Below are positions 37,107 to 53,617 of a stretch of DNA of 64,000 nt, one piece after another; position 1 is the first letter of the stretch, and each line of letters opens with the position of its first letter. The stretch lies in contig JAFFSR010000088.1 of assembly GCA_017163975.1 (NCBI GenBank), positions 583,001 to 647,000 on the forward strand. The letters are read 5' to 3'. The notes beneath the pieces are model-generated. The model had not been told where the DNA came from, searched no databases, and saw only the letters and a list, made by a program, of their open reading frames with translations. This DNA comes from Anastatus disparis. Lineage: Eukaryota > Arthropoda > Insecta > Hymenoptera > Eupelmidae. A program made the translations under genes and the position numbers.

Positions 37107-37230
37107 AGTAGATAGGCTATAGGCATACTGGCACACCCGGATTGTAGCACACCCCCTCTCCTCCCCCAAGTGTGTTAGAATCCGTGTCATTTAAAATACA
37201 TGTGAACTCCACCCCCTGTTTAAAAAATGA
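37107..37230. repeat. Left terminal inverted repeat and subterminal region of the Polinton
   Basis: The first ~46 bases pair with the right end except for one base (GGATTGTAGCACA against GGATTCTAGCACA). Further in, TGTGTTAGAATCCG and TGTGTTACAATCCG (37163, 37262) echo the TAGAATCCG units of the right end. Confidence 0.9.
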
Positions 37231-37690
37231 AAAAGGATAAAACACTTGTCTCCCTCCACTAAATGTGTTACAATCCGGTCTATTTAAAATACGTATAAGT
37301 CTTCGCTTCCTTAAAAAAATGTATTTTCTTTTAGGAAAGGGCTAGCCCTTCTCTCTTCTTATTTTTAAGGAAAGGATAGAGCGCCGCCCACTGTATGTTC
37401 TATTTTGGGGACGCAGAAAAATTGACCTACTCTTAGAAGAGAGGGAAAGGGCAGACCTTTTAGGCAGTGCTGGTCTACTATGCGTTTTCTTTGACATTGC
37501 ATGAAAATTTATCTGCTTTTAGAAGAGAGGGAAAGGGGCGACCTGTCTCTAAATGCAGTACACTGTGTGTGTTCTTTTTTAAGTCACAGGTGCATGAAAA
37601 TAATGAATTGCGCCTTTTTTTAGGATATAGTACATAAGCAAAGCTATAAATTTGCTTTCTATTATATTTTTTAAGTCACTGTTTTTGAAA
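37231..37690. other. Subterminal non-coding region of the Polinton, left
   Basis: Repeated phrases AGAAGAGAGGGAAAGGG (37436, 37520) and CTACTATGCGTTTTC / ACTGTGTGTGTTCTTT. No reading frame recognised. Confidence 0.5.
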
Positions 37691-37699
37691 GATTATCTT

Positions 37700-38340
37700 T
37701 TGTTCTTTTTTTGAGAAAAAAAAGATTCATTGAAAGCGTCAGCTACCTTTTCTTTTCTTGTTTTAAAATAGAGAATCCTTATTTGAAGAAAATATACGAG
37801 GTTTTACTCTGTTAAAAAAGGAAAATGCTGTTTTGAAAATGTTTCTTTTATACTCACAGGCGCATGTCGGCTTTCTTGAGAAAAAGTATCTTGCAGGGGG
37901 TTCAAAGATTTCACGTGCAAAAGTTTTTTAATATGAAGAGACATTTATTGAAAGGGTTACTTGTATTCATTTTTTAACTTCTAAGATATTGTCTTATATC
38001 ACTTTTTGTTAAAGAAAATCTTTTTTGAGAAAAAAAGATTTATTGAAAGGGTCAGCTACCTTTTCTCTTCTTGTTTTAAAATAGAGAATCCTTATTTGAA
38101 GAAAATATATGAGGCTTTACTCTGTTAAAAAAGGAAAATGCTTTTTTGAAAATGTTTCTTTTATTTTCACAGGTGCATGTCTGCTTTCTTGAGAAAAAGT
38201 ATCTTGCAGGAGGGTCAAAGATTTCACGTGTGAAAGTTTTTTAAGATGAAGAGTTATTTATTGAAAGGGTTACTTGTATTCTTTTTTAACTTCTAAGATA
38301 TTGTCTTAAGTTACTTTTTGTAAAAGAAAATCTTTTTGAG
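37700..38340. repeat. Two tandem ~313-bp repeats in the Polinton
   Basis: The block with GTCAGCTACCTTTTCT, AAAATAGAGAATCCTTATTTG and TTTCTTGAGAAAAAGTATCTTGCAGG occurs at 37731-38043 and again at 38044-38330, about 93% alike by eye. No gene within. Confidence 0.85.
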
Positions 38341-38894
38341 AAAAAATCAGAGAGTTCCGCTGAAAATAATCAGCAATCGACACAGCAGTCGACATTACAG
38401 ATAAATCGGCGGTCGAGGAATCGCAGCTCAAGCTCGAGTTCATATTCATCAAACAGAGGAGCAAAACAGAGCAACAAGGGACAAAAAAGATCAATTAATG
38501 ATCTTGGACCGATCCCCATGAAGAAAAAGACGCTAAGTAAGTTTATTTTTTTTAATGATTTTTTTTTAAATTTTACATATAATTTTATTTCTAATATTAT
38601 TTTCTTATTTTTGTTTACAGATGATTCTGAAAACAGACATCGCCATGAAGAGAAATCGGTTCCCTCTACCTCTTCAGGATATAGAGCAACGGAACCAATA
38701 CCATCAACCTCCTCGGCGGGCCAAGAATTTAAGCAACAAACACCGTCTACTTCAAAAGGTAAATTATTCAAAATAAATAAATAAATAAATAAATAAAATA
38801 TTCATATTATTTCATTTTTCAATTTTACTTTATAGGAAGCAAAAAAGAAGGAAAAGTTCAGCAAGAAAAAAAACCAACTTCAGCACGGGAGTAG
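38333..38894 (+). CDS. Ser/Arg-rich protein gene with two introns, start not located
   Basis: Exon 1 ends 38536 (donor GTAAGTTT), exon 2 is 38621-38758 (acceptor TTTGTTTACAG, donor GTAAATTA), exon 3 is 38836-38894 ending in TAG at 38892. Both joins keep one frame, which supports the model. Exon 1 encodes a run rich in Gln, Ser and Arg (RRSRNRSSSSSSYSS) followed by a basic patch KKK; exon 2 is rich in Ser, Thr and Pro (VPSTSSGYR, PSTSSAGQE). Low-complexity, presumably disordered and nucleic-acid binding or phosphorylated; no known family recognised. The frame is open upstream to ~38293 without a clear ATG, so a further 5' exon is likely. Position next to the left terminus suggests an early or accessory Polinton gene. 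Confidence 0.55.
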
Positions 38895-38952
38895 ATGAAA
38901 AAAGTTGGCCGACAGCTTGCTGAAAAAAATAAGAGTTCGGCTACTACCAGCG

Positions 38953-39289
38953 CGTCATCATCAGCAGACCGACATTCGGCTACAGCGTGCACGCCATCAG
39001 CAGCAGGCCGACATTCGGCTACAGCGTGCACACCATCAGCAGCAGACCGACATTTGGTTACAGCGTGCACGCCATCAGCAGCAGGCCGACATTCGGCTAC
39101 AGCGTGCACACCATCAGCAGCAGACCGACATTCGGCTACAGCGTGCATGCCATCAGCAGCAGGCCGACATTCGGCTACAGCGTGCACACCATCAGCAGCA
39201 GACCGACATTCAGCTACAGCGTGCACACCATCAGCAGCAGCCGACCTACATTCAGCTACAGCGTGCACACCATCAGCAACAGTCCGACC
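38953..39289. repeat. 39-bp minisatellite, about 8.6 copies
   Basis: The unit CCATCAGCAGCAGGCCGACATTCGGCTACAGCGTGCACG is repeated head to tail with few changes (GGCCG/GACCG alternate). Because 39 is a multiple of three and the unit has no stop, three forward and at least one reverse frame are open. It starts ~60 bp after the stop of the Ser/Arg-rich gene. GC content is far above the surroundings. Confidence 0.95.
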
Positions 39290-39309
39290 TCGTATGCGCG
39301 AGGATATAA

Positions 39310-39889
39310 TTATACGCGAGGATACAACTATAATAGAATAGTTATATTTAAAACTTTATATTTTAGTATTCTGTTGTAATACATACTTATATTTATATAT
39401 TTTTAATGAATATCTTTTAGGATTTAAAAAAAAATAAAATAAATAGAAATAATTTGATTCTTCTTTTTTTTCCTTATACTCATATTCCTCCTTTCCAATT
39501 CCTTTACAATAAATAACTTAATATTAAACTTAATAACTCTTAATTTTATAGATAATTAAATACAATAATATCAATAATATGAAAATTAAACAGTCAAGTT
39601 AATAAAATAAAATAAAGTGTAAATAATACATACAAATTTAGTTAGTACATTAAAATTATGCAACGAAAAATTTATTATTATTATTGATTTGAATATTTAT
39701 ATCTTTAGGATTACTAACATTACTTTACAAAGATCATGTAAATTATCTTGTTCGTATTTAATATTAATTAATTTTTTTTCTAAAGTTTTTTAATTCTCAA
39801 ACATTAAACTTATAATTTTTTTTTTTTTTAATGAGGATCATAAGAAGGGTTGAGAAAAAACCAGAATTCTATTTTTTATTCAATTTAAT
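39310..39889. other. AT-rich non-coding region in the Polinton
   Basis: No gene; separates the minisatellite from the minus-strand gene ending at 39890. Poly-T and ATTATT runs. Confidence 0.5.
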
Positions 39890-40853
39890 TTATTTCCAAT
39901 ATAACTTTATACATTCATCATTATTAGAAATTTTATCGACTTCATCTTTGGAAAATTTAGCATCTAGGTAATCATGTAACCATTTGCGCATCGAAATAGC
40001 ATTAATAACAGCGCACATAGGTTTTCGCCTTAAACAGAGGTCGTGGTTGAAACATGTATATCGTGTACAATTCATTATTCTTTCTAATGATGGGCATCCG
40101 AAGTCTTCAATGTTGCTGATTGTTCTGAAAATAAAGAGGAGAAGGTAATGTAACTTAAAGTATATACAACATGAAAAATAAAGTATTATAAAGTATTAAT
40201 AAGGTTAAATACAGTATGTTAAAGTATCAAAATAATTAAAAAAGTATAAAAAAGTATCAAATAAGTATGGAAAATTATAAAAAAGTATCAAACAAGTATG
40301 GAAAAGTATAAAAAAGTATGAAACAAGTATGAAAAAGTATAAAAAAGTATCAAATAAGTATGGAAAAGTATGAAAAAGTATCAAACAAGTTTGAAAAAGT
40401 TTGGAAAAGTATTAAAACAGCAAGAAAAGTATGAAAGTTGAAACATAAATGTATTACTTACACATTTGGTAAAAGATCAGCTAGCTATTGCGCTTTCTGC
40501 TCACCCTTGACAAATACTTTTTTGACTCCTTGCGAACAAATTTCAAAAATTTTTTGAAGACGATGGTAAGGTATATCTCCAGAGTTCCATTGTATTCCAT
40601 GGTGATACTTTTCCAACCATTGCGTTGTACTTTTTTCTTCTTGACTCAATTCTCTCCATGTCATCGGAGCTTTAAAGAGATACGCAGTTGGAAAAGCAGT
40701 TTTCCTAAAATTCAGAAAACTGACTTCCTTAAAAATAAAAGAATCCCCAGACATGCCTTGAAATCCTTGTATGTTACAAATATAAACGTTCTCTTCAGAA
40801 AATTCTAATATTGCATTTTTAATCATTGCACCATAGTCACAGGTTCTAGCCAT
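39890..40853 (-). pseudogene. Polinton protein of unknown function, left paralogue, with one intron and a stop
   Basis: Minus strand. Exon 1 is 40853-40462 (donor GTAAGTAATA); exon 2 is 40124-39890 (acceptor TTTATTTTCAG). Joining gives a continuous frame apart from a TAG at 40485-40487. It is homologous to the gene at 52935-53408 at the other end: both share IQGF/MIGFK, YLFKAP.(T)W / HLFKKPFSW, HGIQWNSGDI / HGIAWNTDGL, KKVFVKGEQK / TKIFVINEFK, then C..H.....CA in the second half (TCFNHDLCLRRKPMCAVINA). At the TAG position the paralogue has Trp, so the stop is a single-base nonsense change. Cys/His positions suggest metal binding. Function unknown; the family occurs in other insect Polintons as far as I recall. 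Confidence 0.7.
40190..40440. repeat. AAGTAT-based short tandem repeats inside the intron
   Basis: AAAAAGTAT(C/G)AAA(C/T)AAGTATGG units of about 20 bp are repeated a dozen times. They occupy most of the intron of the 39890-40853 gene. Confidence 0.9.
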
Positions 40854-40979
40854 CTTACAACTCTGAATTTCTTTCAGCGAGAAGTGATTTGAGAGACTGA
40901 ATAAGAAAATTCTTAGTTTTTGGATAGTTTAAAAGAAAAATTTATCCCTTCCTAAAAACTTTTTCCTTCTTTATTTTCC

Positions 40980-41395
40980 AAATTTTTCTTTTCACTATTG
41001 GTCAAATCTCGAAATTTGTATCCCTTATTAAATTTTCTTTTTACTATTGGTAGAATCTTGTAATTTGTATCCCTTATTAAATTTTCTTTTTACTATTGGT
41101 AAAATCTTGTAATTTGTATCCCTTCTTAAATTTTCTTTTTTACCATTGGTCAAATCTCGAAATTTGTATCCCTTCTTAAATTTTCTTTTTTACTATTGGT
41201 AGAATCTTGAAATTTGTATCCCTTCTTAAATTTTTTTTTACTATTGGTCGAATATCACGATTTGTATTCCTTCTTAAATTTTCTTTTTTACTATTGGACG
41301 AATTTTCAAATTCGTAACCCTTCTTAAATTTTCACTAACTTTTCCTTTTACTATTGGACGAACCTTAAAATTTGTATCCCTTCTTACATTGTTTT
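40980..41395. repeat. 49-50-bp tandem repeats, about eight units
   Basis: Units with ACTATTGGT(C/A)(A/G)AATCT, AATTTGTATCCCTTCTTAAAT and TTTTCTTTTT recur with ATTGG at 40997, 41046, 41095, 41145, 41195, 41243, 41293 and 41353. They lie directly upstream of the polymerase start and between two divergent genes (40853 leftward, 41525 rightward), so they may be part of a bidirectional regulatory region; that is inference. Confidence 0.88.
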
Positions 41396-42168
41396 TACTT
41401 ATAAAAAGCGAAGCTATTTCTTGGATGACTACACTTCGTATATAACAATCAGTGAGATTTATTCTTGAATATCGTGTGAGTTGAAACTGTTGCTCTAGTC
41501 ATCTTTTAGTTAAAAAAAGTAAAAATGACTTCAATCGATTTTTTTGAACGTCTTGTCCAATTACTTCGTGATACTTTACGAAGTATAAACGAATTGAGCA
41601 ATGATGATATTCATTATTAGTTAGATATGTGTAATTCTGCTGTCATTAAATTAAACAAAAAAATGGTTCGACCTAACCTCACAAGAGGGGTGAAACAGAA
41701 ATGTCAAACTTGTTTGACACATCTTTCGTGCATGCAAGTGCAGTTGGAACAAAATCTTCATCAAGGAGGCAATCTACAATCTGAAGAAACTGAAGCTAGA
41801 GTCGAGTGGCGAGACGTAGAGTCAGCTTTCCAAAATCGAATCAGAACTGGTGTAGTGGTAAATATTAAACATGTGGACATTCTGAGTTTTTTGAGTGATG
41901 CACAAAAACTTTTTAAAGTTAAGGTTCAGGCGTGCTTAGAAGAATATAATGCGTTAAAAATAAATTCTGATTTCATCTCTGAATTTTCTGTGCAGAAAAA
42001 TACTGAGAAATTAAATGATACTTAATATTTTACAAGTGAAAGTAATACAGTATACATGTCAACTGATTTAGAGGAATGGTTCAAAGATAATATCAAAGAG
42101 CCTATTCTTACGCAAATAGAGGAATTTCAAGAAAAGGATTCAGGTGGACTTTAAAGAGTATAATAAGT

Positions 42169-42915
42169 TTGTGTATAAATATGAAAAAATATTCTCCTTT
42201 GAAGGGTAGTTCTTACATACCTCTTCCGAAGTTTATAGAAAATAAGAAAGCGTGTATTAATGTTCGCAATAATGACAATCAGTGTTTCAAATATGCTGTA
42301 CTTTCCGCATTATATCCTAGTAACCGTAATCCTCAAAGAGTGGATCATTATCTACCGCATAATAATAAGCTGAGGTTTGATAATATTGAATTTCCAGTAA
42401 AAATTAAAAATATTACGAAATTCGAAAAATTAAATAATAATATTTCAATAAACTTATACATGTTGAAAAAGTATGGTCCGAAGTTTGAAGCATCGCCGTG
42501 TCATATTACATCAGAAAAAAAGGTACAACATGTCAATTTGCTCATTATCCAAGATTTCTACATAGATGAGTATGAAGAAAATAATGATGCTGATGATGGA
42601 GACATGCCTCAATATCATTATGTTTGGATTAAAAACTTGTCTCGACTTCTGGCTTCTCAAGTGTCTAAAAGCCATATAAAATCTTACCATTGTGAGAGGT
42701 GTTTACAAATTTTTTATAGTGAAGAAAGATTCGTAATTCATGAAAATAATTGTAAAAATTTAAATAAATGTCGAATTAATTTGCCCGACTCAAAAAATAA
42801 TATTCTCAAATTCGAAGATTACAGCAAGAGTGAAAAAGTTCCTTTTGTTATTTATGCAGATTTTGAATGTTTATTGAAACCTACAGACAGTGGAGAAGGC
42901 TTTTCAACTTCATGA
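42169..42915 (+). CDS. polB: PolB open segment: N-terminal domain to exonuclease motif I
   Basis: 248 codons open. Contains NKKACINVRNNDNQCFKYAV, typical of the Polinton and adenovirus-like polymerase N-terminus, the Cys/His finger and the exonuclease DFE motif. The methionine at 42169 is internal to the protein. Leaves frame at ~42890. Confidence 0.85.
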   Translation: MCINMKKYSPLKGSSYIPLPKFIENKKACINVRNNDNQCFKYAVLSALYPSNRNPQRVDHYLPHNNKLRFDNIEFPVKIKNITKFEKLNNNISINLYMLKKYGPKFEASPCHITSEKKVQHVNLLIIQDFYIDEYEENNDADDGDMPQYHYVWIKNLSRLLASQVSKSHIKSYHCERCLQIFYSEERFVIHENNCKNLNKCRINLPDSKNNILKFEDYSKSEKVPFVIYADFECLLKPTDSGEGFSTS

Positions 42916-43184
42916 AGCATACAGTATTGGATACTACATGAAATGCAGTTTTAATGATAAATTATCTTATTATAAATCATACAGAAGGATTAACGAATGT
43001 GAAGAGACACCTGCAGAATGGTTTGTTAGAGAATTAAAATCAATGGGTGAGAAAATTGATGAACTCTACAAAAATCCAAAACCAATGAAACTTACAGATC
43101 TAGAAGAATTGATTTTCCAGAGGTCAACTAACCAATCCGTGCCGAAGAACTTGCAGTACGAGACCATTGTCATCTCACAGGACG

Positions 43185-43255
43185 GTAAGTTGTCCAATTG
43201 GTTATAATTAAATAAAGAAAATTAATCTGGTTATTTTACGTTTATTTCTTTTTAG
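43185..43255 (+). other. 71-bp intron in the Polinton polymerase
   Basis: Donor GTAAGT at 43185 and acceptor TTTCTTTTTAG ending 43255 lie between the conserved RDHCHLTG-type block and YRGAAHNSCNL. Splicing keeps one frame across the join. Confidence 0.75.
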
Positions 43256-43446
43256 TTACAGAGGTGCAGCTCATAATTCATGTAATTTGAATTATAAGAT
43301 TTCGCGATTCATTCCTGTTATTTTTCATAATCTCAATTATGACACTCATTTAATCTGAAAGAAATTTGGACTTCTACATTGATGAAGGGACGAATGACTC
43401 TAATACCTCATAATAAAGAGAAATACATTTCTTTCACAAAATATAT

Positions 43447-43854
43447 ATGGATAATAGTGACATCAATTTTAGATTTATAGATTCTTGGCGTTTTCTACCA
43501 TCATCATTGGAGAAGCTTGCATCGTACCTCGAAAACGTGCCAATAGCAGTGAGAGAATTTCAAACAGATGGATTTACAGATGCTAAGATAAATCTTCTTA
43601 GACGGAAAGGTGTATTCCCGTACGATTTTGTGGATGGATTAGATAAATTGATGTCTACAAAGCTGCCAGAAAAAAAGGACTTCTACAATAAACTAACGGA
43701 TTCTCATATAGCTGAAGAAGATTATGAGCACGCTGTTCAAGTTTGGAATGATTTCAATATAAAAACTTTAGGAGAGTACTCGGATTTATACTTAAAAACC
43801 GATGTTTTGCTATTGGCTGACGTCTTCGAAAGTTTTCCAAGAGACCTCTCTTAA
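43447..43854 (+). CDS. polB: PolB open segment: exonuclease domain end to palm start
   Basis: Contains INFRFIDSWRFLPSSLEKLA and YLKTDVLLLADVFE, usual exonuclease motif III region of Polinton polymerases. A frame change follows near 43840. Confidence 0.85.
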   Translation: MDNSDINFRFIDSWRFLPSSLEKLASYLENVPIAVREFQTDGFTDAKINLLRRKGVFPYDFVDGLDKLMSTKLPEKKDFYNKLTDSHIAEEDYEHAVQVWNDFNIKTLGEYSDLYLKTDVLLLADVFESFPRDLS

Positions 43855-44386
43855 AGCCTACGATTTATGTCCTGCTCATTTCTACACAACTCCAGGCTTA
43901 ACGTTTTCAGCAGCTCTTAAAATGACGAAGGCAGAATTGGAACTTTTGACAGACATTGACATGCTAATGTTTATCGAAGCAGGTATCCGTGGAGGAATAA
44001 GCCAGTGCTGTAACCGGTATGCAAAGGCAAACAATCCATACATGGGTCCTTCATATGACGAAAATCAGAAAAAGAAGACCCTTCTATATTTTGATATTAA
44101 TAATCTTTATGGTTGGGCGATGATACAACATTTACCGATAGGAAAATTTGAATGGATTGATTATGAAACAATTCCAGATTTCTTCAATACACCGCCAGAT
44201 TCGGATATAGGATATATTGCTGAAGTGGATTTAGAATATCCTGTGGAAATCCATGATGAACAACGGGATTTATCTTTTTGCGCAGAACATCGTCCACCAC
44301 CAGGCTCGAAGCAAAAAAACTGCTTACTACTTTGGACAACAAGGAAAGGTATGTCATACATTATCGGACGCTTAAACAAGCGTTAG
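43802..44386 (+). CDS. polB: PolB open segment: palm with motif A
   Basis: Contains AGIRGGISQCCNRYAKANN and the metal-binding motif A YFDINNLYGWAM (Ile in place of the common Val). Frame change near 44330. Confidence 0.85.
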   Translation: MFCYWLTSSKVFQETSLKAYDLCPAHFYTTPGLTFSAALKMTKAELELLTDIDMLMFIEAGIRGGISQCCNRYAKANNPYMGPSYDENQKKKTLLYFDINNLYGWAMIQHLPIGKFEWIDYETIPDFFNTPPDSDIGYIAEVDLEYPVEIHDEQRDLSFCAEHRPPPGSKQKNCLLLWTTRKGMSYIIGRLNKR

Positions 44387-45786
44387 ATAATAGACTTGGA
44401 TTAAAAAAAGTACATAGAATTTTAAGTTTTGAACAAAAGGCTTGGCTCAAACCTTATGTTGAATTAAATACTGAGAAGAGGAAGCAAGCGAAGAATGAGT
44501 TTGAAAAACTCTTCTATAAATTGCTTATTAACTCTGTATATGGAAAGTGCATCGAACGAGAGCGGTCACGTGTTGATGTGCGATTAATAAATAAATTCAC
44601 AGGTAGATATGGAGCAGAAGCACGCATAGCTCAACCAAATTTTCACAGTTGTGCAATTTTCGATGAAAATTTGGTAGCTATTCAGCTGAAGAGAACGAGT
44701 ATCACAATAAAAAAACCTATATACGTTGGTTTTTCCATCCTTGATTTATCAAAAACACTGCTATATGAGTTTCATTACTCATATATGAAACAGCGACTAG
44801 GACAAAAATGTAAACTTCTATATACAGATACGGATAGTTTAATATATGAAGTTGAAGACATTGATATGTATCAAACAATGAAGGAAGACATTAACAGATT
44901 TGATACTTCTGATTATGCTGAAAATAATCAGTTTAATATTCCACGTGTCAATAAGAAAGTTCCTGGATTAATGAAAGATGAATGCTGTGGCAAGATTATG
45001 TCTGAATTCATAGGTTTGCGGAGTAAAATGTACAGTATTTTGGTTGATGGAGGAGACACAGTGAAAAAAGCTAAAGGTATCAAATCTAACGTCGTGAAGA
45101 AAACAATCACTTTCGAGGATTACCGAAGTTGTCTTCAGGATCTTGTCATTATACACCGTGAACAGTGCAATATTCGATCAAAATTACACACAGTGCATAC
45201 TGAAAAGCAAAGAAAAATTGCACTAAGTCCACACGATGATAAGAGATTTTTATTGCCTGATAGTACAGACACTTTACCATGGGGTCATTTTAGAATTGAA
45301 GAGATACAGATGGCGCAAGCTGCACTTGAAGTAGAGAGGGAATATGCAAGAAAAATGGCTGCTGAAAAAGAGCAGGAGGTGGAAAAGAAGAGGGGACACA
45401 AAGTATCCAATAAAAATAGAGTAACGCGAGTGGGGATGGATGTTACAGAGCATAGCAGAGAGGGGGAAATTGAGAGAGGGGATGAACCATCCAATGAAAA
45501 TAGTGCAGCACGAGTGGGGGTGACACTTCATGGCAACCAAGGTGAGCAAATCATTATTGAGTATGACGTATTAGAGGAGTTCATACATGACTGGGATCCA
45601 TCAATAGAGGGGATAAGTTCCGAAGAAGGTGAGAGAAGGGATTTATTGCAAGTGGCGATGGAAAGGGCAGAAATCGAGGTGGGGTATGGGCTATATCAAG
45701 GGACGGAGCACGATGAGGAGCACATTCAAGTAATCGAAGAGCTTGAGAACGATCAACCTCCTACAAAGAAGCCAAGAGTCAACTAA
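44278..45786 (+). CDS. polB: PolB open segment: motifs B and C and an acidic C-terminal extension
   Basis: 502 codons open. Motif B KLLINSVYGKC, motif C YTDTDSLIYE with both aspartates, and the following thumb (VPGLMKDECCGKIM, EFIGLRSKMY) are intact. After WGHFRIEEIQ the typical polymerase ends, but the frame continues about 160 residues with heptad-like charged sequence (EVEREYARKMAAEKEQEVEKK) and two imperfect units VSNKNRVTRVG and PSNENSAARVG. Either a lineage-specific extension or a former separate gene fused in frame. Confidence 0.88.
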   Translation: MRRTSSTTRLEAKKLLTTLDNKERYVIHYRTLKQALDNRLGLKKVHRILSFEQKAWLKPYVELNTEKRKQAKNEFEKLFYKLLINSVYGKCIERERSRVDVRLINKFTGRYGAEARIAQPNFHSCAIFDENLVAIQLKRTSITIKKPIYVGFSILDLSKTLLYEFHYSYMKQRLGQKCKLLYTDTDSLIYEVEDIDMYQTMKEDINRFDTSDYAENNQFNIPRVNKKVPGLMKDECCGKIMSEFIGLRSKMYSILVDGGDTVKKAKGIKSNVVKKTITFEDYRSCLQDLVIIHREQCNIRSKLHTVHTEKQRKIALSPHDDKRFLLPDSTDTLPWGHFRIEEIQMAQAALEVEREYARKMAAEKEQEVEKKRGHKVSNKNRVTRVGMDVTEHSREGEIERGDEPSNENSAARVGVTLHGNQGEQIIIEYDVLEEFIHDWDPSIEGISSEEGERRDLLQVAMERAEIEVGYGLYQGTEHDEEHIQVIEELENDQPPTKKPRVN

Positions 45787-45889: not shown

Positions 45890-46189
45890 ATGGATTTATC
45901 AACACTTAATAAGATTGCTGGAAGCGACTTCTTGCCAAGGAAAAAAGTTACAGACTTGGAAAAAGATCACCAGTACATGGTGACAGCACTTAAAGAGGTG
46001 AAGACACGATATGGTGTCAAGATTGTAGCAGAATTCGAGCAAAGTTTTCAAGTATTTCTACCAGAGAAGATTTCATCAGCAATTCTAAAAGATGAAGAAT
46101 TTTTTTACAAACTCTGCGATGAAGCAGACAAACTACGTTTGGTCGCAATGTATTTGGGAGAAACTTCTTTCAAATTTGATCGGGTATAA
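45890..46189 (+). CDS. Small Polinton protein, 99 residues, unknown function
   Basis: Intact frame just after the polymerase; the sequence before the ATG, TTTTTATTTTTGATTCCAG, could be a splice acceptor, so a non-coding or short first exon is possible. Begins MDLSTLNKIAGSDFLPRKK and contains TRYGVKIVAEFEQSFQVFLPEKIS, a pattern of alternating hydrophobic residues compatible with a small beta-barrel. Proteins of this type accompany Polintons and some other elements in insects (recalled). A single-strand DNA-binding role would fit the position next to the polymerase but is only a guess. Confidence 0.75.
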   Translation: MDLSTLNKIAGSDFLPRKKVTDLEKDHQYMVTALKEVKTRYGVKIVAEFEQSFQVFLPEKISSAILKDEEFFYKLCDEADKLRLVAMYLGETSFKFDRV

Positions 46190-46425: not shown

Positions 46426-47364
46426 TCAAACAATCTCATTTTTATCTATCCAACTATTATGCTTGTTACTTAGACCTAACCACTTAACATATACACGTTT
46501 ACCACTTTTCTTTAAAACTTTTTCTACTAAATAAATTTCTGGATACATAGTCTTTTGAATTTCCGTTTCATAAAAGCCTCCGGAGACTGGTTCATCATAA
46601 TAATCTTTGACGTGGTAAGTTATGGGATTGGTTTTTACAACTCTTGTTATTGTGAAAATTTCAGTAGACCAATTTGGTGTATAGCCTTTTTCAAAAACTT
46701 GTTTTATCTTACTTATTCGCACTTTATCTCCTACTTTGAATTTTGGTTTTTTTACAGGTCTTTTTTCAGTTGGGTAATTTTTCTTGACTTCTTTTTCATT
46801 TATCTTCGTAACGTTTTCAGGCTCGATTCCTATTGTCCGATGTTTTCTTGAATTGTATGCTTTCACTAACTCAGGCAGAATATCCAACCATTTATAACTT
46901 CCTTGTTTGCTGAATTCTAACCACATTGCATTTTTTAAAGTTCTATTAAAGCGCTCACATATGCTTGCATGAAGATTACTATGTGAAGAGTAGTGATTTA
47001 TCTTGTACTTTTTCATAAGATTCTGAAAGTTTGAATTGTAGAATTCTTTCCCTTGGTCAGTTTGCAAATTCGATGGCACCCGTCCTTGTTTTAATATTGA
47101 CTTCATAGCTAGAGTAACATCATTGCCACTCTTCGATTTGACTGGTACAGCCCATGCATACTTTGAAAATATATCTATGACAGTTAGTAAGTAGCGAAAA
47201 CCTTTGTTTTCCTTAAAATAAGGTATCATTTCTACAAGGTCAGCTTGCCAAGTCTCATCTAATCCACGTATGTCATATTTTCTTCGCTTGTACCTTCGAC
47301 GTGCTGGCTTGTGTAGCTCTTCAACTACTCTTTGACGTTCCATCTTAAACTTCAACTTTAGCAA
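46426..47364 (-). CDS. int: Polinton integrase (retroviral-type) with chromodomain
   Basis: 312 residues, intact. The likely initiator is the second methionine (MERQRVVEEL), since the first lies inside the upstream gene. DDE core: WQADLVEM (D42), LQTDQGKEFY (D103), CERFNRTLKNAMW (E137), spacing as in retroviral integrases. Then SRKHRTIGIEPENV, an SH3-like KPKFKVGDKVRISK region, and a C-terminal chromodomain YLVEKVLKKSGKRVYVKWLG...NSWID, which may bind histone marks. Inserts the element with 6-bp duplications, in accord with ATTGTA at the ends. Overlaps the neighbour (47345-47788) by 20 bases, suggesting co-transcription. Confidence 0.95.
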   Translation of the reverse strand: MLKLKFKMERQRVVEELHKPARRRYKRRKYDIRGLDETWQADLVEMIPYFKENKGFRYLLTVIDIFSKYAWAVPVKSKSGNDVTLAMKSILKQGRVPSNLQTDQGKEFYNSNFQNLMKKYKINHYSSHSNLHASICERFNRTLKNAMWLEFSKQGSYKWLDILPELVKAYNSRKHRTIGIEPENVTKINEKEVKKNYPTEKRPVKKPKFKVGDKVRISKIKQVFEKGYTPNWSTEIFTITRVVKTNPITYHVKDYYDEPVSGGFYETEIQKTMYPEIYLVEKVLKKSGKRVYVKWLGLSNKHNSWIDKNEIV

Positions 47365-47788
47365 TATCCGATCGTCTATTCATTTCTTTAATTATATATT
47401 CAATACTTGCAAAATTTCGTTGAGTCATATCATAGACATAGGTTAATTTTTCGTCTATTTCTGCTTTATATATTTCAACTTTGTTCTCATATTCTTGTAT
47501 AGCTTTAGCAACTTCTATAATTTTAGAAGATAAGTAATCAACTTCTTTCTGTAGGATATTATTTAGTGAATTCAAACTAATGGCATCATTTGAATCATTA
47601 GCCTCTCCAATATTGCAAAGCCGCTTATTTTCTAAATCAAAATGACCATCTGATGTAACATTGAATCCAATACCTCGAGGACCACGACTCACTTGCGAGC
47701 CCTCAAGTTTTCTTCCAAACACATCGAGACTCATGTTACTACTGTTGATTTGAAAATTGTGTACGTCAATATATATGCCCAGCTTCAC
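47345..47788 (-). CDS. Fibre-like or structural Polinton protein (147 residues)
   Basis: Minus strand, overlapping the genes on either side. MSLDVFGRKLEG (residue 19 may be the true start) is followed by SRGPRGIGFNVTSDGHFDLENKR and LCNIGEANDSNDAISLNSLN, a pattern reminiscent of phage and adenovirus-type tail-fibre stems (DG.FD..NKRL.N...P...DA). The second half is a coiled coil (LQKEVDYLSSKIIEVAKAI). Together this suggests a trimeric fibre or attachment protein, by inference from the pattern alone. Intact. Confidence 0.7.
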   Translation of the reverse strand: MKLGIYIDVHNFQINSSNMSLDVFGRKLEGSQVSRGPRGIGFNVTSDGHFDLENKRLCNIGEANDSNDAISLNSLNNILQKEVDYLSSKIIEVAKAIQEYENKVEIYKAEIDEKLTYVYDMTQRNFASIEYIIKEMNRRSDIAKVEV

Positions 47789-48760
47789 GTAGTTCCTCTA
47801 TGATTGATTGGATTTCATTGTTGTGATTATTATTTCCAGCAGATCGTTCGGCTATTAATAATCGCAGTCTTTCGACAAGCTCATTCGGATCATCCCAGTA
47901 GACTAGATCTATGGAAGTATTCTTTTTTGCTATTTTATATTTAGGTATGAGACCCCCTCCGCTGGTAGATATTCTACTGCGATCACTGCGGAACATTGGT
48001 GCTATGATTTTTGAATATTTTCTACTCTTCGAAGAGCGTATATTCTCACTTTTGCTATGTCTTTTTCTATGGGCATTTGTTGCTTCCAGGATAATGCGAT
48101 AGTTCTTGCGATCTGTTGTACTTAAAAGATTATTATCTGGTTCTTTTTTGAAAAGCAATTCGATTAGACCACTGCTTTTAGGAAAACTTAAATCTTTCAC
48201 TTTTATTAGTTTATCATCAAATTGAATTTGTGAATCACCCATCATGTATACCCCACTGACTTTTCTCACTCCGTATATGTTATCGATTTTGCTGCGGCTT
48301 CCATTTAGCATTGATAAAAAGTCTGTCGGTTCAGTTTCTTTATGCGCAGGTACAAATGGTGAATATATAGATTTGAATGATGAATTTGCAGAATTGAATG
48401 ATGAATTCATCATTGTGCTATTTATCGGAGAAAAATCATCGCCATTAGAAGCATTATTATCAAACGCAGAACCCGAGTCATTAATATCGTTTAAAATATA
48501 ACTTGATTCGTCGAATCTCAATCTTTTTTTTGCCGATTTTCTGTTACTGTCTATAGCTGAAATGTGATTAGAACGTGACACACTTTCAGTTGTCGAATCG
48601 ACAAGCTTTTCAAGTGGTGTAATAACTGGTTTTAAAGTATCACCAATAACCTTTTCAAAATCATCTCTCTCCTTTTTTAATAAAGAGTATTTTTTTTTAA
48701 TAGCCTCACGTGCTCGTAAGAGCTCGCTAAGAACATTTTTTCTTTCTTAAAGTCAGGCAT
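47766..48760 (-). pseudogene. Polinton protein of unknown function, frameshifted near its start
   Basis: A frame from 48581 down to 47766 is open (271 residues), but the same frame extends upstream through a coiled-coil stretch (EAIKKKYSLLKKERDDFEK, TLKPVITPLEKLVD) to about 48738, where a one-base shift separates it from MPDFKKEK at 48760. C-terminal block DLVYWDDPNELVERLRLLIA and NEIQSIIEELREAG is the most conserved part in other insect Polintons, as I remember. The middle is Ser/Asn-rich. Possibly a virion core or linker protein; function unknown. The last 23 bases overlap the next gene. Confidence 0.78.
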
Positions 48761-48803
48761 GCTGACAAGATGCTGTCTACAATCGAACTGCAAAGATTAA
48801 GAT

Positions 48804-49497
48804 TTATACTTCCTTTTTAATGGCAAAACAGTCAAATCCTTTTCTATATCTACCATCATTCATTGCTCTATCTTTGTCAATAACAACAAATCCATACTTG
48901 TCATTCTTCCAGCATTCAGTACAAAGATTTCGAAATTCATTTAAAGTTAAGTCAGTATTCACATGGTCTTCATAGATATGTTTAAGATTAACATCATCTT
49001 GACGATAAATTACCATCAAATTAATATTGTCCCTGATGAGATGTTTCGGTATATGAGCATATGACTGACATAGATAAAAGCTATCTACACTTTTGTGTCT
49101 CCCCATACAGAAAAAAGCTCTGACGTTATCCTGCTTCTCACAAGCCACATCGTCAAAAATTATAATTGAATTTGGTAGGGCTTCATCTGGAGACACTACA
49201 GATGCATGTTCACTGAACGGTAGATATGATATACCTTCAATTGGCTCTAAAACTTTTTGAAGAAATTGATATTTCGGTTGATTTAAGGATTTAGAGTATA
49301 CATACAAATTTTCAAATCTAAGACCATTAGGGTGTGTAATTAGAGCCAATAAACTATTAGTTTTTCCACAGTTTGATGGGCCACAGAATACTGCTCGTAT
49401 ATTATCTGGAAGTAACTCCCCATGTCGCTTTTTTTTTCGTTTTCTCAAAATCAAAGTTGGCGACGGGAAGTTTGACGTTCTGCTCAGTAAAATCCAT
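48804..49497 (-). pseudogene. A32-type genome-packaging ATPase, one frameshift in a poly-A run
   Basis: The frame 49454-48804 (216 residues) holds Walker A GPSNCGKT (25-32), Walker B IIIFDD (97-102), and KSVDSFYLCQSYAHIPKHLIRDN, the family's sensor region. The natural start is upstream at 49497 (MDFTEQNVKLP); a run of nine A (49429-49437 as T on the plus strand) carries the shift between them. The annotated Met at 49454 is thus internal. The protein powers packaging of the genome into capsids in virus-like relatives. Confidence 0.92.
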
Positions 49498-49595
49498 GTT
49501 TACGTAACAAAGTCAAATCTAAGATTGACCTTTTCAAAATATAAACGCTTGTTTTATATTTTGATCATCAGTTGTAAATCAGCACTCGAAGAGAG
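49498..49595. promoter_or_regulatory. Divergent promoter region between ATPase and virion genes
   Basis: About 100 bp between the ATPase start (49497, minus) and the minor virion gene (49596, plus). TATAAACG (49540) and TTTTATATTTTG (49551) can serve as TATA-like elements on either strand. Inferred from position. Confidence 0.45.
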
Positions 49596-50408
49596 ATGCT
49601 CGTACACAAATCACAGAAGCACCCTAAGGGTAAAGGGTTACTTGATAAAGTAATCAATAACTTACCTATTGAAATGCATATTCCTGGATATCAATATTGT
49701 GGTCCCGGAACAAAACTGAAAAAGCGTCTAAAAAGAGGTGATGCAGGTATCAATCCACTTGATCAAGCATGTAAAGAACATGACATATCTTATTCTGATA
49801 AAAATGCTAATCGAAAAGTAGCTGACATGAAGCTCGCTGATAAAGCTTGGCAGCGTGTTAGAGCCAAAAATGCAAGTCTTAGCGAAAAAGCAACTGCTTT
49901 TGTTGTTGCAAATGCTATGAAATTAAAAGGAAAGACAGGAATGGGTGTAAAATTGAGTAAATTAGTAACTGCAAGTAAAAAATCATTAAAACCAAGTAAA
50001 CATTCTCGCAAAGTTATACAGTCCGCTTTAAAAGGTGCACGTGAAGCTCTCAAGATTGTTGGCGGTAAGAAAAAAATTATCATTCCACGTATTCTACCTG
50101 TTCCATCAAAAATAGGTGGCGCTCTGCCTTTTCTCATACCATTGTTCGCAGCACTAAGTGCAACTGGTGCTCTGGCTGGAGGAGCTGCTGGAATAGCTAA
50201 AGCAGTAAATGAGGCTAAAGCTGCACAGAAAAATTATGAAGAAAGTAAGAGACATAATAAAACTATGGAAGCTATTGCTCTAGGAAAAGGTCTCTATCTT
50301 AAACCATATAAAACTGGAATGGGATTATTTATGAAACCTCATATCGGTAATGGTCAAGTTAAAAAAAAAAAACTTCGATTTAACTTTGCCAAATCGTGCA
50401 CTGACTGA
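49596..50408 (+). CDS. Minor virion protein with phospholipase A2 domain and membrane-active segment
   Basis: 270 residues. N-terminal PLA2 of the parvovirus VP1u type: calcium loop YCGPGT (34-39) and catalytic HD (62-63) followed by Tyr66. Then a basic region, IIIPRILPVPSKIGG and a hydrophobic glycine/alanine-rich segment LPFLIPLFAALSATGALAGG, and a repeat-like end (GKGLYLKPYKTGMGLFMKP) as seen in adenovirus pVI/pX-like proteins of adintoviruses. PLA2 would act on membranes during entry. The frame runs through twelve A (50361-50372); the protease frame starts in the overlap, one base out of register. Confidence 0.88.
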   Translation: MLVHKSQKHPKGKGLLDKVINNLPIEMHIPGYQYCGPGTKLKKRLKRGDAGINPLDQACKEHDISYSDKNANRKVADMKLADKAWQRVRAKNASLSEKATAFVVANAMKLKGKTGMGVKLSKLVTASKKSLKPSKHSRKVIQSALKGAREALKIVGGKKKIIIPRILPVPSKIGGALPFLIPLFAALSATGALAGGAAGIAKAVNEAKAAQKNYEESKRHNKTMEAIALGKGLYLKPYKTGMGLFMKPHIGNGQVKKKKLRFNFAKSCTD

Positions 50409-50742
50409 CTATGATCTTATAAAGTATGCTCGTATGATGAAAATCCCATATTTTCGAGGTGTTTTCATGAGAAATAATCTACCTTCTGATGGCCCATGGC
50501 ATAACGAATCTGCTATAGTTAACTTAGATGATTTTCAAAACAAAGGCACTCACTGGGTATGTTATCGAAAACGAGGTTCTGAAGTGATTTATTTTGATAG
50601 TTTTGGTGATCTTAAACCCCCTATAGATCTCATGTTATATTTTAACGTGAAAGAAGTGAAATACAACTATAAAAGATATCAAAATTTTGACTCATTTATT
50701 TGTGGACATCTTTGTCTTCAATTCTTGTGTGAAAGACTATAA
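50350..50742 (+). CDS. Adenovirus-type cysteine protease
   Basis: 130 residues visible. Catalytic residues His68 (GTHWVCY), Asp83 (YFDSFGDLKPP) and Cys118 (FICGHLCLQFL) are all present. The region from NRALTDYDLIKYAR and GVFMRNNLP is the usual N-terminus. No convincing initiator: Met at 50350 lies in the end of the PLA2-protein frame, and a poly-A run of twelve lies between, so the protease was probably fused to the upstream protein or expressed through a frame change. It would mature capsid precursors. Confidence 0.9.
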   Translation: MVKLKKKNFDLTLPNRALTDYDLIKYARMMKIPYFRGVFMRNNLPSDGPWHNESAIVNLDDFQNKGTHWVCYRKRGSEVIYFDSFGDLKPPIDLMLYFNVKEVKYNYKRYQNFDSFICGHLCLQFLCERL

Positions 50743-50787
50743 AAGAAGAGTTTTCAGACAAGCAGGATCATTCTTTTTCAAACAGTC

Positions 50788-51477
50788 ATGGAAGATAGTT
50801 TCACTTTGAGTCTTTCAGGCAAATCTTCTATCTTAGAAGCGCAATATTTTCCTTCAATAGAACTACCACAGCATAAGAATTTTGTTTTGGGTTTAGTTGA
50901 ACTTTTAACATTCAACTCGATTCCCAATGTTGACGATTCGAATAATAAACTTCATATAAACGGAGAGAAGATTATTATTATTCCTACTGGCAGTTATGAA
51001 ATTGATGCTATTAATCAATTTTTGCAAAAAGATTTGAAATCTAAAGGAATCGAATTTTCCTTAAAAGCTAACAACAATACTCTCAGAAGTGAAATTTATT
51101 GCAGCCATGAGATAAATCTTAGACCTCGGGATTCAATAGGCAGTCTTCTCGGTTTCACTCGTCGCGTTCTTCATGAAGACACTCATCACAGCTCTGATTT
51201 ACCTGTGAAGATATTGAAAATAAACGCACTCAGAGTAGAGTGTAATATTACTACAGGTGCTTACATCAACGACAAAAAAGTTCACACGATCCATGAGTTT
51301 TTCCCAAAAGTTCCTCCAGGATATAAAATCATAGAAGTTCCATCGCATGTCATATATTTACCACTCAATGTTAAAAGTATAGATCATCTTCAAATCCGAA
51401 TTGTTGATCAAGACGGAAATTTAGTGAATTTCCGAGGAGAGGAAATTACTGTTAGACTTCACATAAAATCTGTATAA
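50788..51477 (+). CDS. Minor capsid protein (penton-like, single jelly roll)
   Basis: 229 residues, intact. Alternating strands typical of jelly-roll proteins; conserved blocks RPRDSIGSLLGFTRRVL, LRVECNITTGAYIN, HTIHEFFPKVPPGYKI, QIRIVDQDGNLVNFRGEEI. This is the Polinton mCP, predicted to form the capsid vertices. Starts 45 bp after the protease; likely the same transcription block. Confidence 0.92.
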   Translation: MEDSFTLSLSGKSSILEAQYFPSIELPQHKNFVLGLVELLTFNSIPNVDDSNNKLHINGEKIIIIPTGSYEIDAINQFLQKDLKSKGIEFSLKANNNTLRSEIYCSHEINLRPRDSIGSLLGFTRRVLHEDTHHSSDLPVKILKINALRVECNITTGAYINDKKVHTIHEFFPKVPPGYKIIEVPSHVIYLPLNVKSIDHLQIRIVDQDGNLVNFRGEEITVRLHIKSV

Positions 51478-51653
51478 TGGGAATCGTTTATAATTCAAGT
51501 GTGCATATAAGTCAGCCATCATGTCAACCCACCATCAGTCGTCCAAAGGTACTCAAACTGTTAACACGGAAGAGCATCCAGTTTCTCAAAAGCATAGGTC
51601 TCAAAGTACGTGGAAAAAGATAAATTGTATCATTCTCTGCTGCTTTCAGAAAA
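51478..51653 (+). other. Gap before the major capsid gene, possible short frame
   Basis: Contains an ATG at 51521 opening about 60 codons (MSTHHQSSKGTQTVNTEEHP) that overlap the capsid start out of frame. It ends in TGCTTTCAG directly before the capsid ATG, so it may also hold a 5' leader with splice acceptor. Undecided. Confidence 0.35.
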
Positions 51654-52895
51654 ATGGACGAAATTCTAAGCATTCAATCAGGTGTCGCATTCGATGAGTC
51701 TATTGCTCATTATGAGGTTCACGCACATCAACCATACTCCACATTAAGTTTCAATAACAGTGATGAAATCCGTATTTCTATTCAGCATCAAGATTTATGC
51801 CTCTTACCATCATGTAGTTACATCCATGTATGTGGAAAATTACAAAAACCAGATGGACAAGCACTAACTAAAACTAATTTCGTTAACAATGGCATTTGTC
51901 ATCTGTTTGATGAAATTCGATATGAACTTAATGCTGTAGAGATAGATAAAAGTAAAAATGTTGGTCTGAGTAGTCTCATGAAGGGATGCACTTCATTTAA
52001 TCCAAATCAGACTCTAACATTAGAAAATGCAGGCTGGCTTGGTGTTGAAGAAGGAAACAAAACAATTGTAGATGATCATGGAAATTTTGACGTTTCTATC
52101 CCACTAAGTATGATTTTAGGCTTCGCAGAAGATTACAAGAAAATTGTTGTTAATATGAAGCATGAACTCATTCTCACAAGATCAAGAAATGACCTGAATG
52201 CTATAGTACAGGAAGGTACTGTAGTCAACAATGCAACCACATATGAACCTTATCAAATAAAAATATCAAAGATAGAGTGGTTAATGCCATATGTTATTGC
52301 ATCAGATAACAAAAAAATCCAGCTGTTAAATTTCATTGGCAAAGATAATCCTATTTCTATGAGTTTTCGTTCATGGGAGTTATTTGAATATCCTCTTCTT
52401 CCAACAACAAATAAACACGTCTGGACGGTAAAAACTTCAAATCAATTGGAGAAACCACGTTTCGTGATTCTTGGATTACAATCGGGAAAAAAAGGTTCAA
52501 GACCTAAAAATGCCAGTCGCTTTGACCACTGTAATATTAATAATGTGAGACTTTTCTTGAATTCGCAATATTATCCGTACAACAATCTCAATCTTGACAT
52601 ATCTAAGAATCAATTTGCTATTCTATATGATATGTATGCTAATTTTCAGAAAAGCTATTACGGAAGAGATTCACAACCATTGTTGACAAAGTCTCAGTTT
52701 ATCAACTTTGAACCACTCATAGTTATTGACTGTTCACGACAAAACGAATCTCTAAAGAGCGCTCCTGTCGATGTACGTCTAGAATTTGAGTCTCAAACTG
52801 ACTTTCCAGCTAATACTTCAGCTTATTGCATGATCTTACACGATCGCATCGTTCAGTACAATCCTATTAGTGGAGATGTTCGGAAGCTTGTCTGA
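51654..52895 (+). CDS. Major capsid protein (hexon-like, double jelly roll)
   Basis: 413 residues, intact. Conserved Polinton MCP blocks: LSIQSGVAFDESIAHYEVHA, GICHLFDEIRYELNAVEID, GFAEDYKKIVVNMKHEL, then near the end CNINNVRLFLNSQYYPYNNL and YDMYANFQKSYYG. Two jelly-roll halves are expected, as in adenovirus hexon. Its integrity beside a broken polymerase suggests that the loss of function is recent. Confidence 0.95.
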   Translation: MDEILSIQSGVAFDESIAHYEVHAHQPYSTLSFNNSDEIRISIQHQDLCLLPSCSYIHVCGKLQKPDGQALTKTNFVNNGICHLFDEIRYELNAVEIDKSKNVGLSSLMKGCTSFNPNQTLTLENAGWLGVEEGNKTIVDDHGNFDVSIPLSMILGFAEDYKKIVVNMKHELILTRSRNDLNAIVQEGTVVNNATTYEPYQIKISKIEWLMPYVIASDNKKIQLLNFIGKDNPISMSFRSWELFEYPLLPTTNKHVWTVKTSNQLEKPRFVILGLQSGKKGSRPKNASRFDHCNINNVRLFLNSQYYPYNNLNLDISKNQFAILYDMYANFQKSYYGRDSQPLLTKSQFINFEPLIVIDCSRQNESLKSAPVDVRLEFESQTDFPANTSAYCMILHDRIVQYNPISGDVRKLV

Positions 52896-52934
52896 ATTAT
52901 CTTCACTTTTACGTAAAAAAATTAATATTTCGAA

Positions 52935-53408
52935 ATGGAATATGCGGTAGACATGATTGGTTTTAAGCAAATGGGTGGTGAATATGTTCTAAAGGAAATA
53001 GCAATCATTCCTCTCAACGACAGTGGTGATCCCATCGTTCATCTATTCAAAAAACCTTTTTCATGGAAAAGGCTCTCTGACAAATTGCAAGAAGAAAACA
53101 TTCGACTCAAACATAATCATGGAATAGCTTGGAACACTGATGGACTAGATTACTCTCAAATTGCAAACTTACTCCGTGAACATTTACATGATGCTACAAA
53201 AATTTTTGTTATTAATGAATTCAAACGAAAATGGTTGCTAAGATTCAAATTTCCCGTTTATAACATCAATGAATACGGATACCCATTAAACCCATCTTTC
53301 AAATGCGTTACTGTGTGTACAAACCATAATCCAATTCATAAGACTGTCTGTGCACTACACAATGTCAAACTCATGAAATTATTCTATCTCTCACAAAACC
53401 ATTTATAA
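52935..53408 (+). CDS. Polinton protein of unknown function, right paralogue
   Basis: 157 residues, intact, last gene before the right terminus. Homologous to 39890-40853 across its whole length (shared patterns GFKQMGGEYVLKEI, HLFKKPFSWKRLS, HNHGIAWNTDGLDY, C..H.....CALHNVKLM). It has no intron, while the left paralogue has one. The C-terminal Cys/His set may bind metal. Function unknown. Confidence 0.8.
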   Translation: MEYAVDMIGFKQMGGEYVLKEIAIIPLNDSGDPIVHLFKKPFSWKRLSDKLQEENIRLKHNHGIAWNTDGLDYSQIANLLREHLHDATKIFVINEFKRKWLLRFKFPVYNINEYGYPLNPSFKCVTVCTNHNPIHKTVCALHNVKLMKLFYLSQNHL

Positions 53409-53442
53409 GAAGAAAAAAAAAAAAAAAGTAGAAAAAGTAGAA

Positions 53443-53611
53443 AACGCTATAGGCATACTAGTTCACATTCGGATTCTAAAACACTTGGGCTGTGCTAGAA
53501 TCCGTACGGGTTCTAACACACCATGGGCTGTGCTAGAATCCGTACGGGTTCTAGCACACCATGGGCTGTGCTAGAATCCGGGTGTGCCAGTATGCCTATA
53601 GCCTATCTACT
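53443..53611. repeat. Right terminus of the Polinton, hairpin-like with tandem units
   Basis: The outermost ~46 bases are the terminal inverted repeat. Inward, GGGCTGTGCTAGAATCCG and GGGTTCTA(A/G)CACACCATGG alternate twice with period ~46, and at 53449 CGCTATAGGCATACTAG repeats the left-terminus phrase in the opposite orientation to the outer end. The whole 169-bp segment is therefore foldable on itself. Confidence 0.85.
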
Positions 53612-53617
53612 ATTGTA
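53612..53617. repeat. Target site duplication ATTGTA, right
   Basis: Identical to 37101-37106. Confidence 0.95.

What the first reader, a model, noticed from the sequence alone, without database searches (positions are those of the whole stretch)
37107..53611. Nearly complete Polinton with readable termini, 6-bp duplications and intact capsid genes
Seen directly: AG...CT termini, ATTGTA on both sides, and the full Polinton gene set. Capsid, penton, integrase and right unknown gene are uninterrupted, while the polymerase has about eight lesions. Selective survival of integrase and virion genes could be chance or could mean trans-supported or domesticated use of the virion genes.
Basis: partly seen in the sequence, partly recalled or inferred. 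Interest (0 to 1): 0.8.

Follow-up and report, generated by a model that had tools for sequence, protein, structure and literature searches.

The report
Young wasp Polinton with broken polymerase
This is a nearly complete virus-like mobile element (Polinton/adintovirus) sitting in what looks like a parasitoid wasp genome; its polymerase gene is broken while its capsid and integrase genes read through, most simply because it lost its polymerase recently, and it is a new member of a well-known kind.

Summary
A 16.5-kb Polinton/adintovirus lies at 37107-53611 with AG...CT ends, 49-nt inverted repeats and ATTGTA on both sides. Capsid and integrase are full length by comparison with relatives; eight other ORFs are open but were not compared. 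The 31 organism-named capsid relatives of 120 listed are hymenopteran. The polymerase has eight breaks (one stop, seven frame switches); a ninth apparent interruption is a 71-nt GT-AG intron. A left-end gene also seems to have a stop. If the eight breaks were independent, their confinement to the polymerase among eleven genes would have p = 4e-4. But away from the breaks the polymerase is as conserved as capsid plus integrase (0 of 116 against 2 of 174 deviating sites), and relative-rate tests show no long neutral drift (95% limit 1.8%). So it broke recently, or the stretch is badly assembled. Long selective survival is not shown; trans-support or domestication is not excluded. Other copies in the genome, the decisive test, could not be searched: the genome search did not complete. 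New member of a known kind; the intron and a 176-nt palindromic right end are the less ordinary details.

The parts
37101..37106 (.). target-site duplication ATTGTA, left copy
   Evidence: read
37107..37155 (+). left terminal inverted repeat, begins AG
   Evidence: 49 nt, 96% complementary to 53563-53611
38518..39341 (+). left-end ORF region of unknown function with GT-AG intron candidates 38537-38620 and 38759-38835 and a 39-nt tandem array (38956-39288)
   Evidence: introns by sequence signals only
40125..40853 (-). diverged paralog of the right-end unknown gene, with an apparent in-frame stop (ORF 40485-40853) and a GT-AG intron candidate 40125-40461; its far end was not delimited
   Evidence: (28% identity over 99 residues, E 7e-16); no outside homolog used
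41627..45786 (+). family B DNA polymerase in pieces: one in-frame stop and seven frame switches within about 42.02-44.37 kb; C-terminal piece 44317-45786 uninterrupted
43185..43255 (+). 71-nt GT-AG (GTAAGT...TTTTTAG) phase-2 intron inside the polymerase gene
   Evidence: 27 of 27 homologs holding both flanking pieces have exactly the one split residue between them
45890..46189 (+). small ORF; resemblance to a single-stranded-DNA-binding protein is recalled only
   Evidence: no Pfam hit; no PHROGs hit
46426..47364 (-). rve-type integrase, uninterrupted; chromo-like C-terminus below Pfam cut-off
47345..47788 (-). fibre-like protein, weak similarity to phage tail-fibre N-terminus
   Evidence: PF03906, E 3.6e-4, below cut-off; phrog_13980, E 0.0024
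47766..48581 (-). open ORF of unknown function
48804..49454 (-). packaging ATPase (Pox_A32), open ORF
49596..50408 (+). phospholipase-A2-like minor virion protein, open ORF
50350..50742 (+). protease-like ORF (name by order and recalled motif), open
   Evidence: no hit
50788..51477 (+). penton-like ORF (name by gene order and recall), open
   Evidence: no hit
51654..52895 (+). major capsid protein, double jelly roll, 413 aa, uninterrupted
52935..53408 (+). right-end ORF of unknown function, open
53436..53611 (.). right terminus as one 176-nt imperfect palindrome built of 38-nt units, ending in the right inverted repeat (53563-53611)
   Evidence: (z -13); left end differs (z -4.2)
53612..53617 (.). 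target-site duplication ATTGTA, right copy
   Evidence: read

Best explanation
It is a fairly young integrated copy of an adintovirus-type Polinton in a hymenopteran, probably chalcidoid wasp, genome. Shown: it entered as a unit, with matched termini and an exact 6-bp duplication, and it carries integrase, capsid, ATPase and polymerase genes. Inferred from the family: the integrase joined the linear DNA to the chromosome, the polymerase copied it by protein priming, and the capsid genes made particles. Shown on the sequence as given: the polymerase is now broken in eight places. Inferred: this copy can no longer copy itself, the break-up is recent, and the other genes read through mainly because too little time has passed, with some clustering of the breaks by local events. 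It could still supply integrase or capsid proteins, or be copied by an intact relative, but nothing here shows that it does.
For: Exact duplication and 47 of 49 matching repeat bases. Conserved-site test at columns at least 97% conserved: capsid 1 of 102, integrase 1 of 72, polymerase pieces 6 of 158, and 0 of 116 more than 60 nt from a break; in the one polymerase piece checked residue by residue (43838-44299), 6 of 9 sites deviating at the 90% level agree with at least one close relative. Relative-rate tests with the first outgroup: polymerase 28 window-only against 20 relative-only changes over 530 codons, capsid 22 against 27 over 411, integrase 12 against 13 over 266; extra neutral divergence of the polymerase 0.7%, 95% limits 0 to 1.8%. 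Capsid end branch 0.15 against 0.14 for its sister P0001. Vertebrate Mavericks: 96% of loci eroded, and whole sets of copies with fragmented polymerase (PMC8097293, sections 6 and 8 read).
Against: If the eight breaks are independent, their confinement to the polymerase has p = 4e-4, and 13 would be expected in the other ten ORFs at the same rate. Counting sites near breaks, the polymerase deviates more: 6 of 42 within 60 nt of a break (0 of 116 elsewhere, p 2.7e-4), and two pieces stand near the top of their homologs (7 of 54 at the 95% level with 1 of 87 homologs as high; 7 of 23 at the 90% level with 0 of 24 as high); at the 90% level all polymerase pieces together give 22 of 281 against 12 of 282 (p 0.08). 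The C-terminal polymerase piece has more window-only than relative-only changes in 11 of 15 comparisons, 17 against 7 at most (p 0.064). No test covers 41627-42885 (no listed homolog covered the piece tried there). Power is low.
Confidence: 0.62

Rival explanations
1. The stretch of about 2.3 kb that holds all eight polymerase breaks is a poorly sequenced or gap-filled part of the assembly, and the real polymerase is intact or less broken; the element may then be a fully coding provirus.
For: All eight breaks fall in about 42.02-44.37 kb and none is seen in the next 9 kb; seven of eight are frame switches; more than 60 nt from the breaks the polymerase amino acids are unchanged at conserved sites, 0 of 116.
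Against: Of the seven break-holding zones printed, one (44.31-44.38 kb) has a single-base run of 5 or more, so homopolymer errors do not explain the rest. One break is an in-frame stop. A second gene, at 40485-40853, also appears to have a stop, outside that stretch.
Confidence: 0.17
2. Selective retention: after the polymerase was lost, the virion and integrase genes stayed under selection, either because other copies or infecting relatives replicate this one in trans, or because the wasp uses the particles.
For: No break seen in ten ORFs (6.76 kb) against eight in the polymerase (4.09 kb), p = 4e-4 if independent. Capsid and integrase show no extra divergence (upper limits 1.1% and 1.5%). 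Parasitoid wasps are known to domesticate viruses (PMC12724227 and PMC11075835, search listings and abstract starts only).
Against: Away from the breaks the polymerase is as conserved in amino acids as capsid and integrase, which long retention of only the latter would not give. Open ORFs include ones that are not virion genes (45890-46189, 52935-53408; roles unknown), so the pattern is not clearly specific to virion genes. Termini and duplication are those of an ordinary mobile copy. No expression or copy-number data. Eight of the ten ORFs were not checked for truncation.
Confidence: 0.12

Closest known systems
Megastigmus wasp adintovirus (P0015 hexon, P0303 integrase)
   Same: Capsid 69% identical in the alignment (68%), integrase 64%; both proteins of near-equal length (414 and 308 aa); a chalcid host
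Polinton/Maverick proteins of Nasonia vitripennis (P0132, P0124, P0142 polymerase; P0008, P0010, P0029, P0064, P0068 capsid; P0328 integrase)
   Same: Polymerase pieces 82-88% identical, integrase 84% over the aligned part
   Different: The five Nasonia capsids among the 120 listed are only 64-68% identical to this one; the closest capsid is the unnamed P0001 (80-81%)
Vertebrate Mavericks of Barreat and Katzourakis 2021 (PMC8097293)
   Same: 6-bp duplication, inverted repeats, core genes; both intact copies and copies with fragmented polymerase are described (sections 6 and 8 read, passages elsewhere)
   Different: Intact vertebrate copies are described there as having intronless ORFs; here the polymerase has a 71-nt intron

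Membership tests
Polinton/Maverick (class Polintoviricetes) | 6-bp target-site duplication and inverted repeats starting AG / ending CT | tested here: met
   the ungapped repeat is only 49 nt, short for the group (recalled); with gaps the similarity runs further inwards
[quoted passage not shown]
   (PF03175 in three pieces, one above cut-off) and 2742 matches of the C-terminal piece among 7988 candidates scored; gene broken; protein priming itself not testable
Polinton/Maverick (class Polintoviricetes) | retrovirus-like integrase | tested here: met
   PF00665 55.8 bits, cut-off 32.6; 7655 matches among 7982 candidates scored
Polinton/Maverick (class Polintoviricetes) | Ulp1-type cysteine protease | tested here: inconclusive
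   ORF 50350-50742 has no Pfam hit; assigned by order and recalled motif
Polinton/Maverick (class Polintoviricetes) | genome-packaging ATPase | tested here: met
   PF04665 34.1 bits, cut-off 22.8
Polinton/Maverick (class Polintoviricetes) | double-jelly-roll major capsid protein | tested here: met
Polinton/Maverick (class Polintoviricetes) | penton (minor capsid) protein | tested here: inconclusive
   ORF 50788-51477, no Pfam or PHROGs hit
Adintovirus (Eupolintoviridae) | hexon recognisable by simple protein search among adintovirus hexons | tested here: met
   P0015, named adintovirus hexon, E 3.9e-191; one direction only; definition from passages of PMC11071296; family name
Adintovirus (Eupolintoviridae) | integrase with C-terminal chromodomain | tested here: inconclusive
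   PF00385 23.3 bits, just under its cut-off of 25.1
Adintovirus (Eupolintoviridae) | polymerase with N-terminal OTU-like domain | tested here: inconclusive
   no Pfam hit of that kind in pieces 41627-42025 and 42169-42915; the region is broken
Domesticated endogenous virus of parasitoid wasps | virion genes kept by selection on the host | not testable with these tools
   needs orthologs or other copies at DNA level; none could be fetched (genome search did not complete)
Domesticated endogenous virus of parasitoid wasps | expression in wasp ovary or venom gland and particles | not testable with these tools
   no transcript or particle data here

The most novel reading that the evidence does not exclude
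A Polinton-derived locus in a parasitoid wasp that has lost its own polymerase but whose capsid, packaging and integrase genes are kept by selection, so that the wasp, or other copies in trans, still makes Polinton particles: a domesticated virus of a kind that I do not recall among those of parasitoid wasps.
Probability: 0.07. Interest if true: 0.85.

Novelty: new member of a known kind. Interest (0 to 1): 0.33.

Why it matters
Whether Polintons still make particles in animals is an open question, and parasitoid wasps repeatedly turn viruses into delivery particles. A recent copy with open capsid, integrase and packaging genes is a good place to look for transcripts and particles. The case also shows a trap: one apparent lesion in the polymerase is a spliceosomal intron, so lesion counts in such elements can be inflated.

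Tried and rejected
Other copies in the own genome: the genome search with the capsid protein was asked 14 times and never answered, so copy number, lesions in other copies and dN/dS are untested. Relatives with DNA: four scans of viral contigs (capsid, capsid alignment, terminal pattern, relative polymerase P0132) gave none. The right-end unknown gene: no Pfam, PHROGs or PDB sequence match and a model of pLDDT 43, not searched further. The capsid sequence itself had no PDB sequence match at E 0.01; the fold did. Rfam at gathering thresholds and tRNA scans of the window: nothing.

Considered and rejected: the 43185-43255 interruption as a lesion (it is an intron); an N-terminally truncated integrase (the 120 listed homologs have a median length of 306, and the 8 whose first residues were printed start within about seven residues of the window's start; a few listed homologs are longer, 394 to 513 aa, and were not examined); all breaks as homopolymer errors.

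Limits: protein searches list only the best 120 of 1825 (capsid), 2742 (polymerase) and 7655 (integrase) matches, chosen by likeness to the window. In one search, homologs covering under 70% of a piece were dropped (under 80%), leaving 120 (capsid), 120 (integrase) and 118, 87, 57, 30 and 24 (polymerase pieces) rows. In one search the piece 43835-44365, whose end is out of frame, gave 6 of 46 deviations with 1 of 82 homologs as high; it was trimmed afterwards. In one search, 23 long relatives were used as probes and the matches of 10 printed. The 2.25 amino-acid changes per codon per unit divergence is an assumption; it uses P0132 as relative for two polymerase pieces and P0142 for the third, outgroup P0121. 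Break positions in scripts were set by eye. The comparison of break counts singles out the polymerase after the fact.

Literature: search listings; passages of PMC4028283, PMC8097293, PMC11071308, PMC11071296, PMC6035795 and PMC8363768; sections 6 and 8 of PMC8097293. Starrett 2021 (PMC8502044) is not held. None of the listings and passages that I saw describes this element; a search for Nasonia with adintovirus gave 0 papers. That is no proof of absence from print.
Full report
What is there. The window holds one integrated Polinton at 37107-53611. Its ends read AGTAGATAGG... and ...CCTATCTACT, and ATTGTA stands at 37101-37106 and 53612-53617. The inverted repeats are 49 nt without gaps, with two mismatches; a gapped alignment carries the likeness further inwards. 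From left to right: tandem repeats and spliced-looking left genes, the polymerase in pieces, a small ORF, then on the minus strand integrase, a fibre-like protein, an unknown protein and the ATPase, then on the plus strand a phospholipase-A2-like protein, protease-like, penton-like and capsid genes and an unknown right-end gene. Pfam supports integrase, ATPase, phospholipase, capsid and polymerase; penton and protease are named by order and recall only.

Whose element. The capsid has 1825 matches at E 0.001 or better among 3397 candidates; of the 120 listed, 31 carry an organism name and all 31 are Hymenoptera or, once, a virus named after a wasp (order assignments recalled except Megastigmus). 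In a tree of 32 capsids the window pairs with the unnamed P0001 (100/100); which named lineage is next is not resolved. Polymerase pieces are 82-88% identical to Nasonia proteins, though the polymerase list also holds a beetle protein at 57% (P0202). The host is therefore inferred to be a hymenopteran, probably chalcidoid wasp; the window gives no independent proof.

The polymerase. Relatives aligned to the window switch frame repeatedly. I count one in-frame stop (relative P0142 aligns through it) and seven frame switches, all between about 42.02 and 44.37 kb; the one near 42.15 kb rests on reading the frames. A further interruption at 43185-43255 is not a lesion. It is 71 nt, begins GTAAGT and ends TTCTTTTTAG, and in 27 of 27 homologs that hold both flanking pieces exactly one residue, the split codon, lies between them (of 120 homologs, 36 held the right piece). 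This is a phase-2 spliceosomal intron by all signs; no transcript was seen. GT-AG candidates also split the left-end genes at 38537-38620, 38759-38835 and 40125-40461, on signals alone. Of the seven break-holding zones printed, one has a single-base run of five or more.

Is the survival selective? Counting breaks says perhaps: eight in 4086 nt of polymerase, none seen in 6762 nt of ten other ORFs; p = 4e-4 if the breaks are independent, 0.02 if they are four events, 0.05 if three. The polymerase was singled out after the fact, and the left-end gene at 40485-40853 appears to have an in-frame stop as well, so breaks are not confined to the polymerase.

Amino-acid changes say that little time has passed. 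At columns at least 97% conserved, the window deviates at 1 of 102 capsid sites, 1 of 72 integrase sites and 6 of 158 polymerase sites; more than 60 nt from a break it is 0 of 116 (Fisher p 0.16 for all, 0.52 away from breaks). In the piece 43838-44299, 6 of the 9 sites deviating at the 90% level agree with at least one close relative, leaving three private ones.

Results against this reading. All six polymerase deviations lie within 60 nt of a break, 6 of 42 against 0 of 116 (p 2.7e-4), and some may be local damage. Two polymerase pieces rank near the top of their homologs (7 of 54 at the 95% level, 1 of 87 homologs as high; 7 of 23 at the 90% level, 0 of 24 as high). At the 90% level the polymerase as a whole is somewhat worse, 22 of 281 against 12 of 282 (p 0.08); at the 95% level 11 of 203 against 7 of 217 (p 0.34). 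The capsid at the 95% level deviates at 6 of 131 sites, with 13 of 120 homologs as high.

Relative rates. Counts with the first outgroup give polymerase 28 against 20, capsid 22 against 27, integrase 12 against 13. Of the 45 single comparisons, four have p under 0.05, and in all four the relative, not the window, changed more; the C-terminal polymerase piece leans the other way in 11 of 15, none significant. The implied extra neutral divergence is 0.7% (0-1.8%) for the polymerase, 0 (up to 1.1%) for capsid and 0 (up to 1.5%) for integrase. So the polymerase broke recently or the stretch is badly assembled; a long life of virion genes without a polymerase is not shown.

How it most likely works. 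Entry by integrase with a 6-bp duplication is shown by the footprint. Replication by a protein-primed polymerase and packaging into particles are inferred from the family. With its polymerase broken, the copy cannot replicate by itself; its integrase and virion genes could still be expressed or help, or be helped by, other copies. Fragmented-polymerase Mavericks occur in vertebrates, where 96% of loci are eroded, and 134 intact ones exist (PMC8097293). Polintons are a sizeable part of the DNA transposons of Nasonia and braconid wasps (PMC6035795, passages), and adintoviruses were assembled from Drosophila samples (PMC8363768, passages).

Less ordinary details. The right 176 nt (53436-53611) fold into one long hairpin (-56 kcal/mol, z -13) built from 38-nt units around a CGTACG centre, with an inward-facing copy of the terminal repeat at its start; the left end does not form such a hairpin (z -4.2). 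A box GTGCTAGAATCCG occurs nine times in the two ends and once elsewhere in the window with up to two mismatches. It may be a binding site for integrase or terminal protein; this is a guess.

Verdict. A new member of a known kind, of moderate interest because of its host.

Noticed in passing
43185-43255: 71-nt GT-AG intron inside the polymerase gene. Six of 120 listed relatives' ORFs start at about this point, which would fit a shared intron, while 27 relatives' proteins are continuous across it (some are gene models in which an intron may have been removed).
   Followed up: yes
53436-53611: The right terminus is one 176-nt imperfect palindrome made of 38-nt units; the left terminus is not.
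   Followed up: partly
47345-47788: Fibre-like protein beside the integrase with weak similarity to phage tail-fibre N-terminal domains (PF03906, phrog_13980).
   Followed up: no
40485-40853 and 52935-53408: Two diverged copies of one unknown gene sit near opposite ends of the element on opposite strands; the left one appears to have an in-frame stop and a candidate intron.
   Followed up: partly
44317-45786: The polymerase runs about 160 residues past the point (45297) where most relatives printed stop aligning; P0121 shares this tail.
   Followed up: no
38956-39288: 39-nt tandem array open in several frames on both strands.
   Followed up: no
17863-20870: Copia-type retrotransposon pieces (PF07727 in 19047-20870; the rest by reading).
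   Followed up: no
8487-8948 and 34135-34662: Two copies, 52% identical over 112 residues, of an uncharacterised gene family with no Pfam hit.
   Followed up: no
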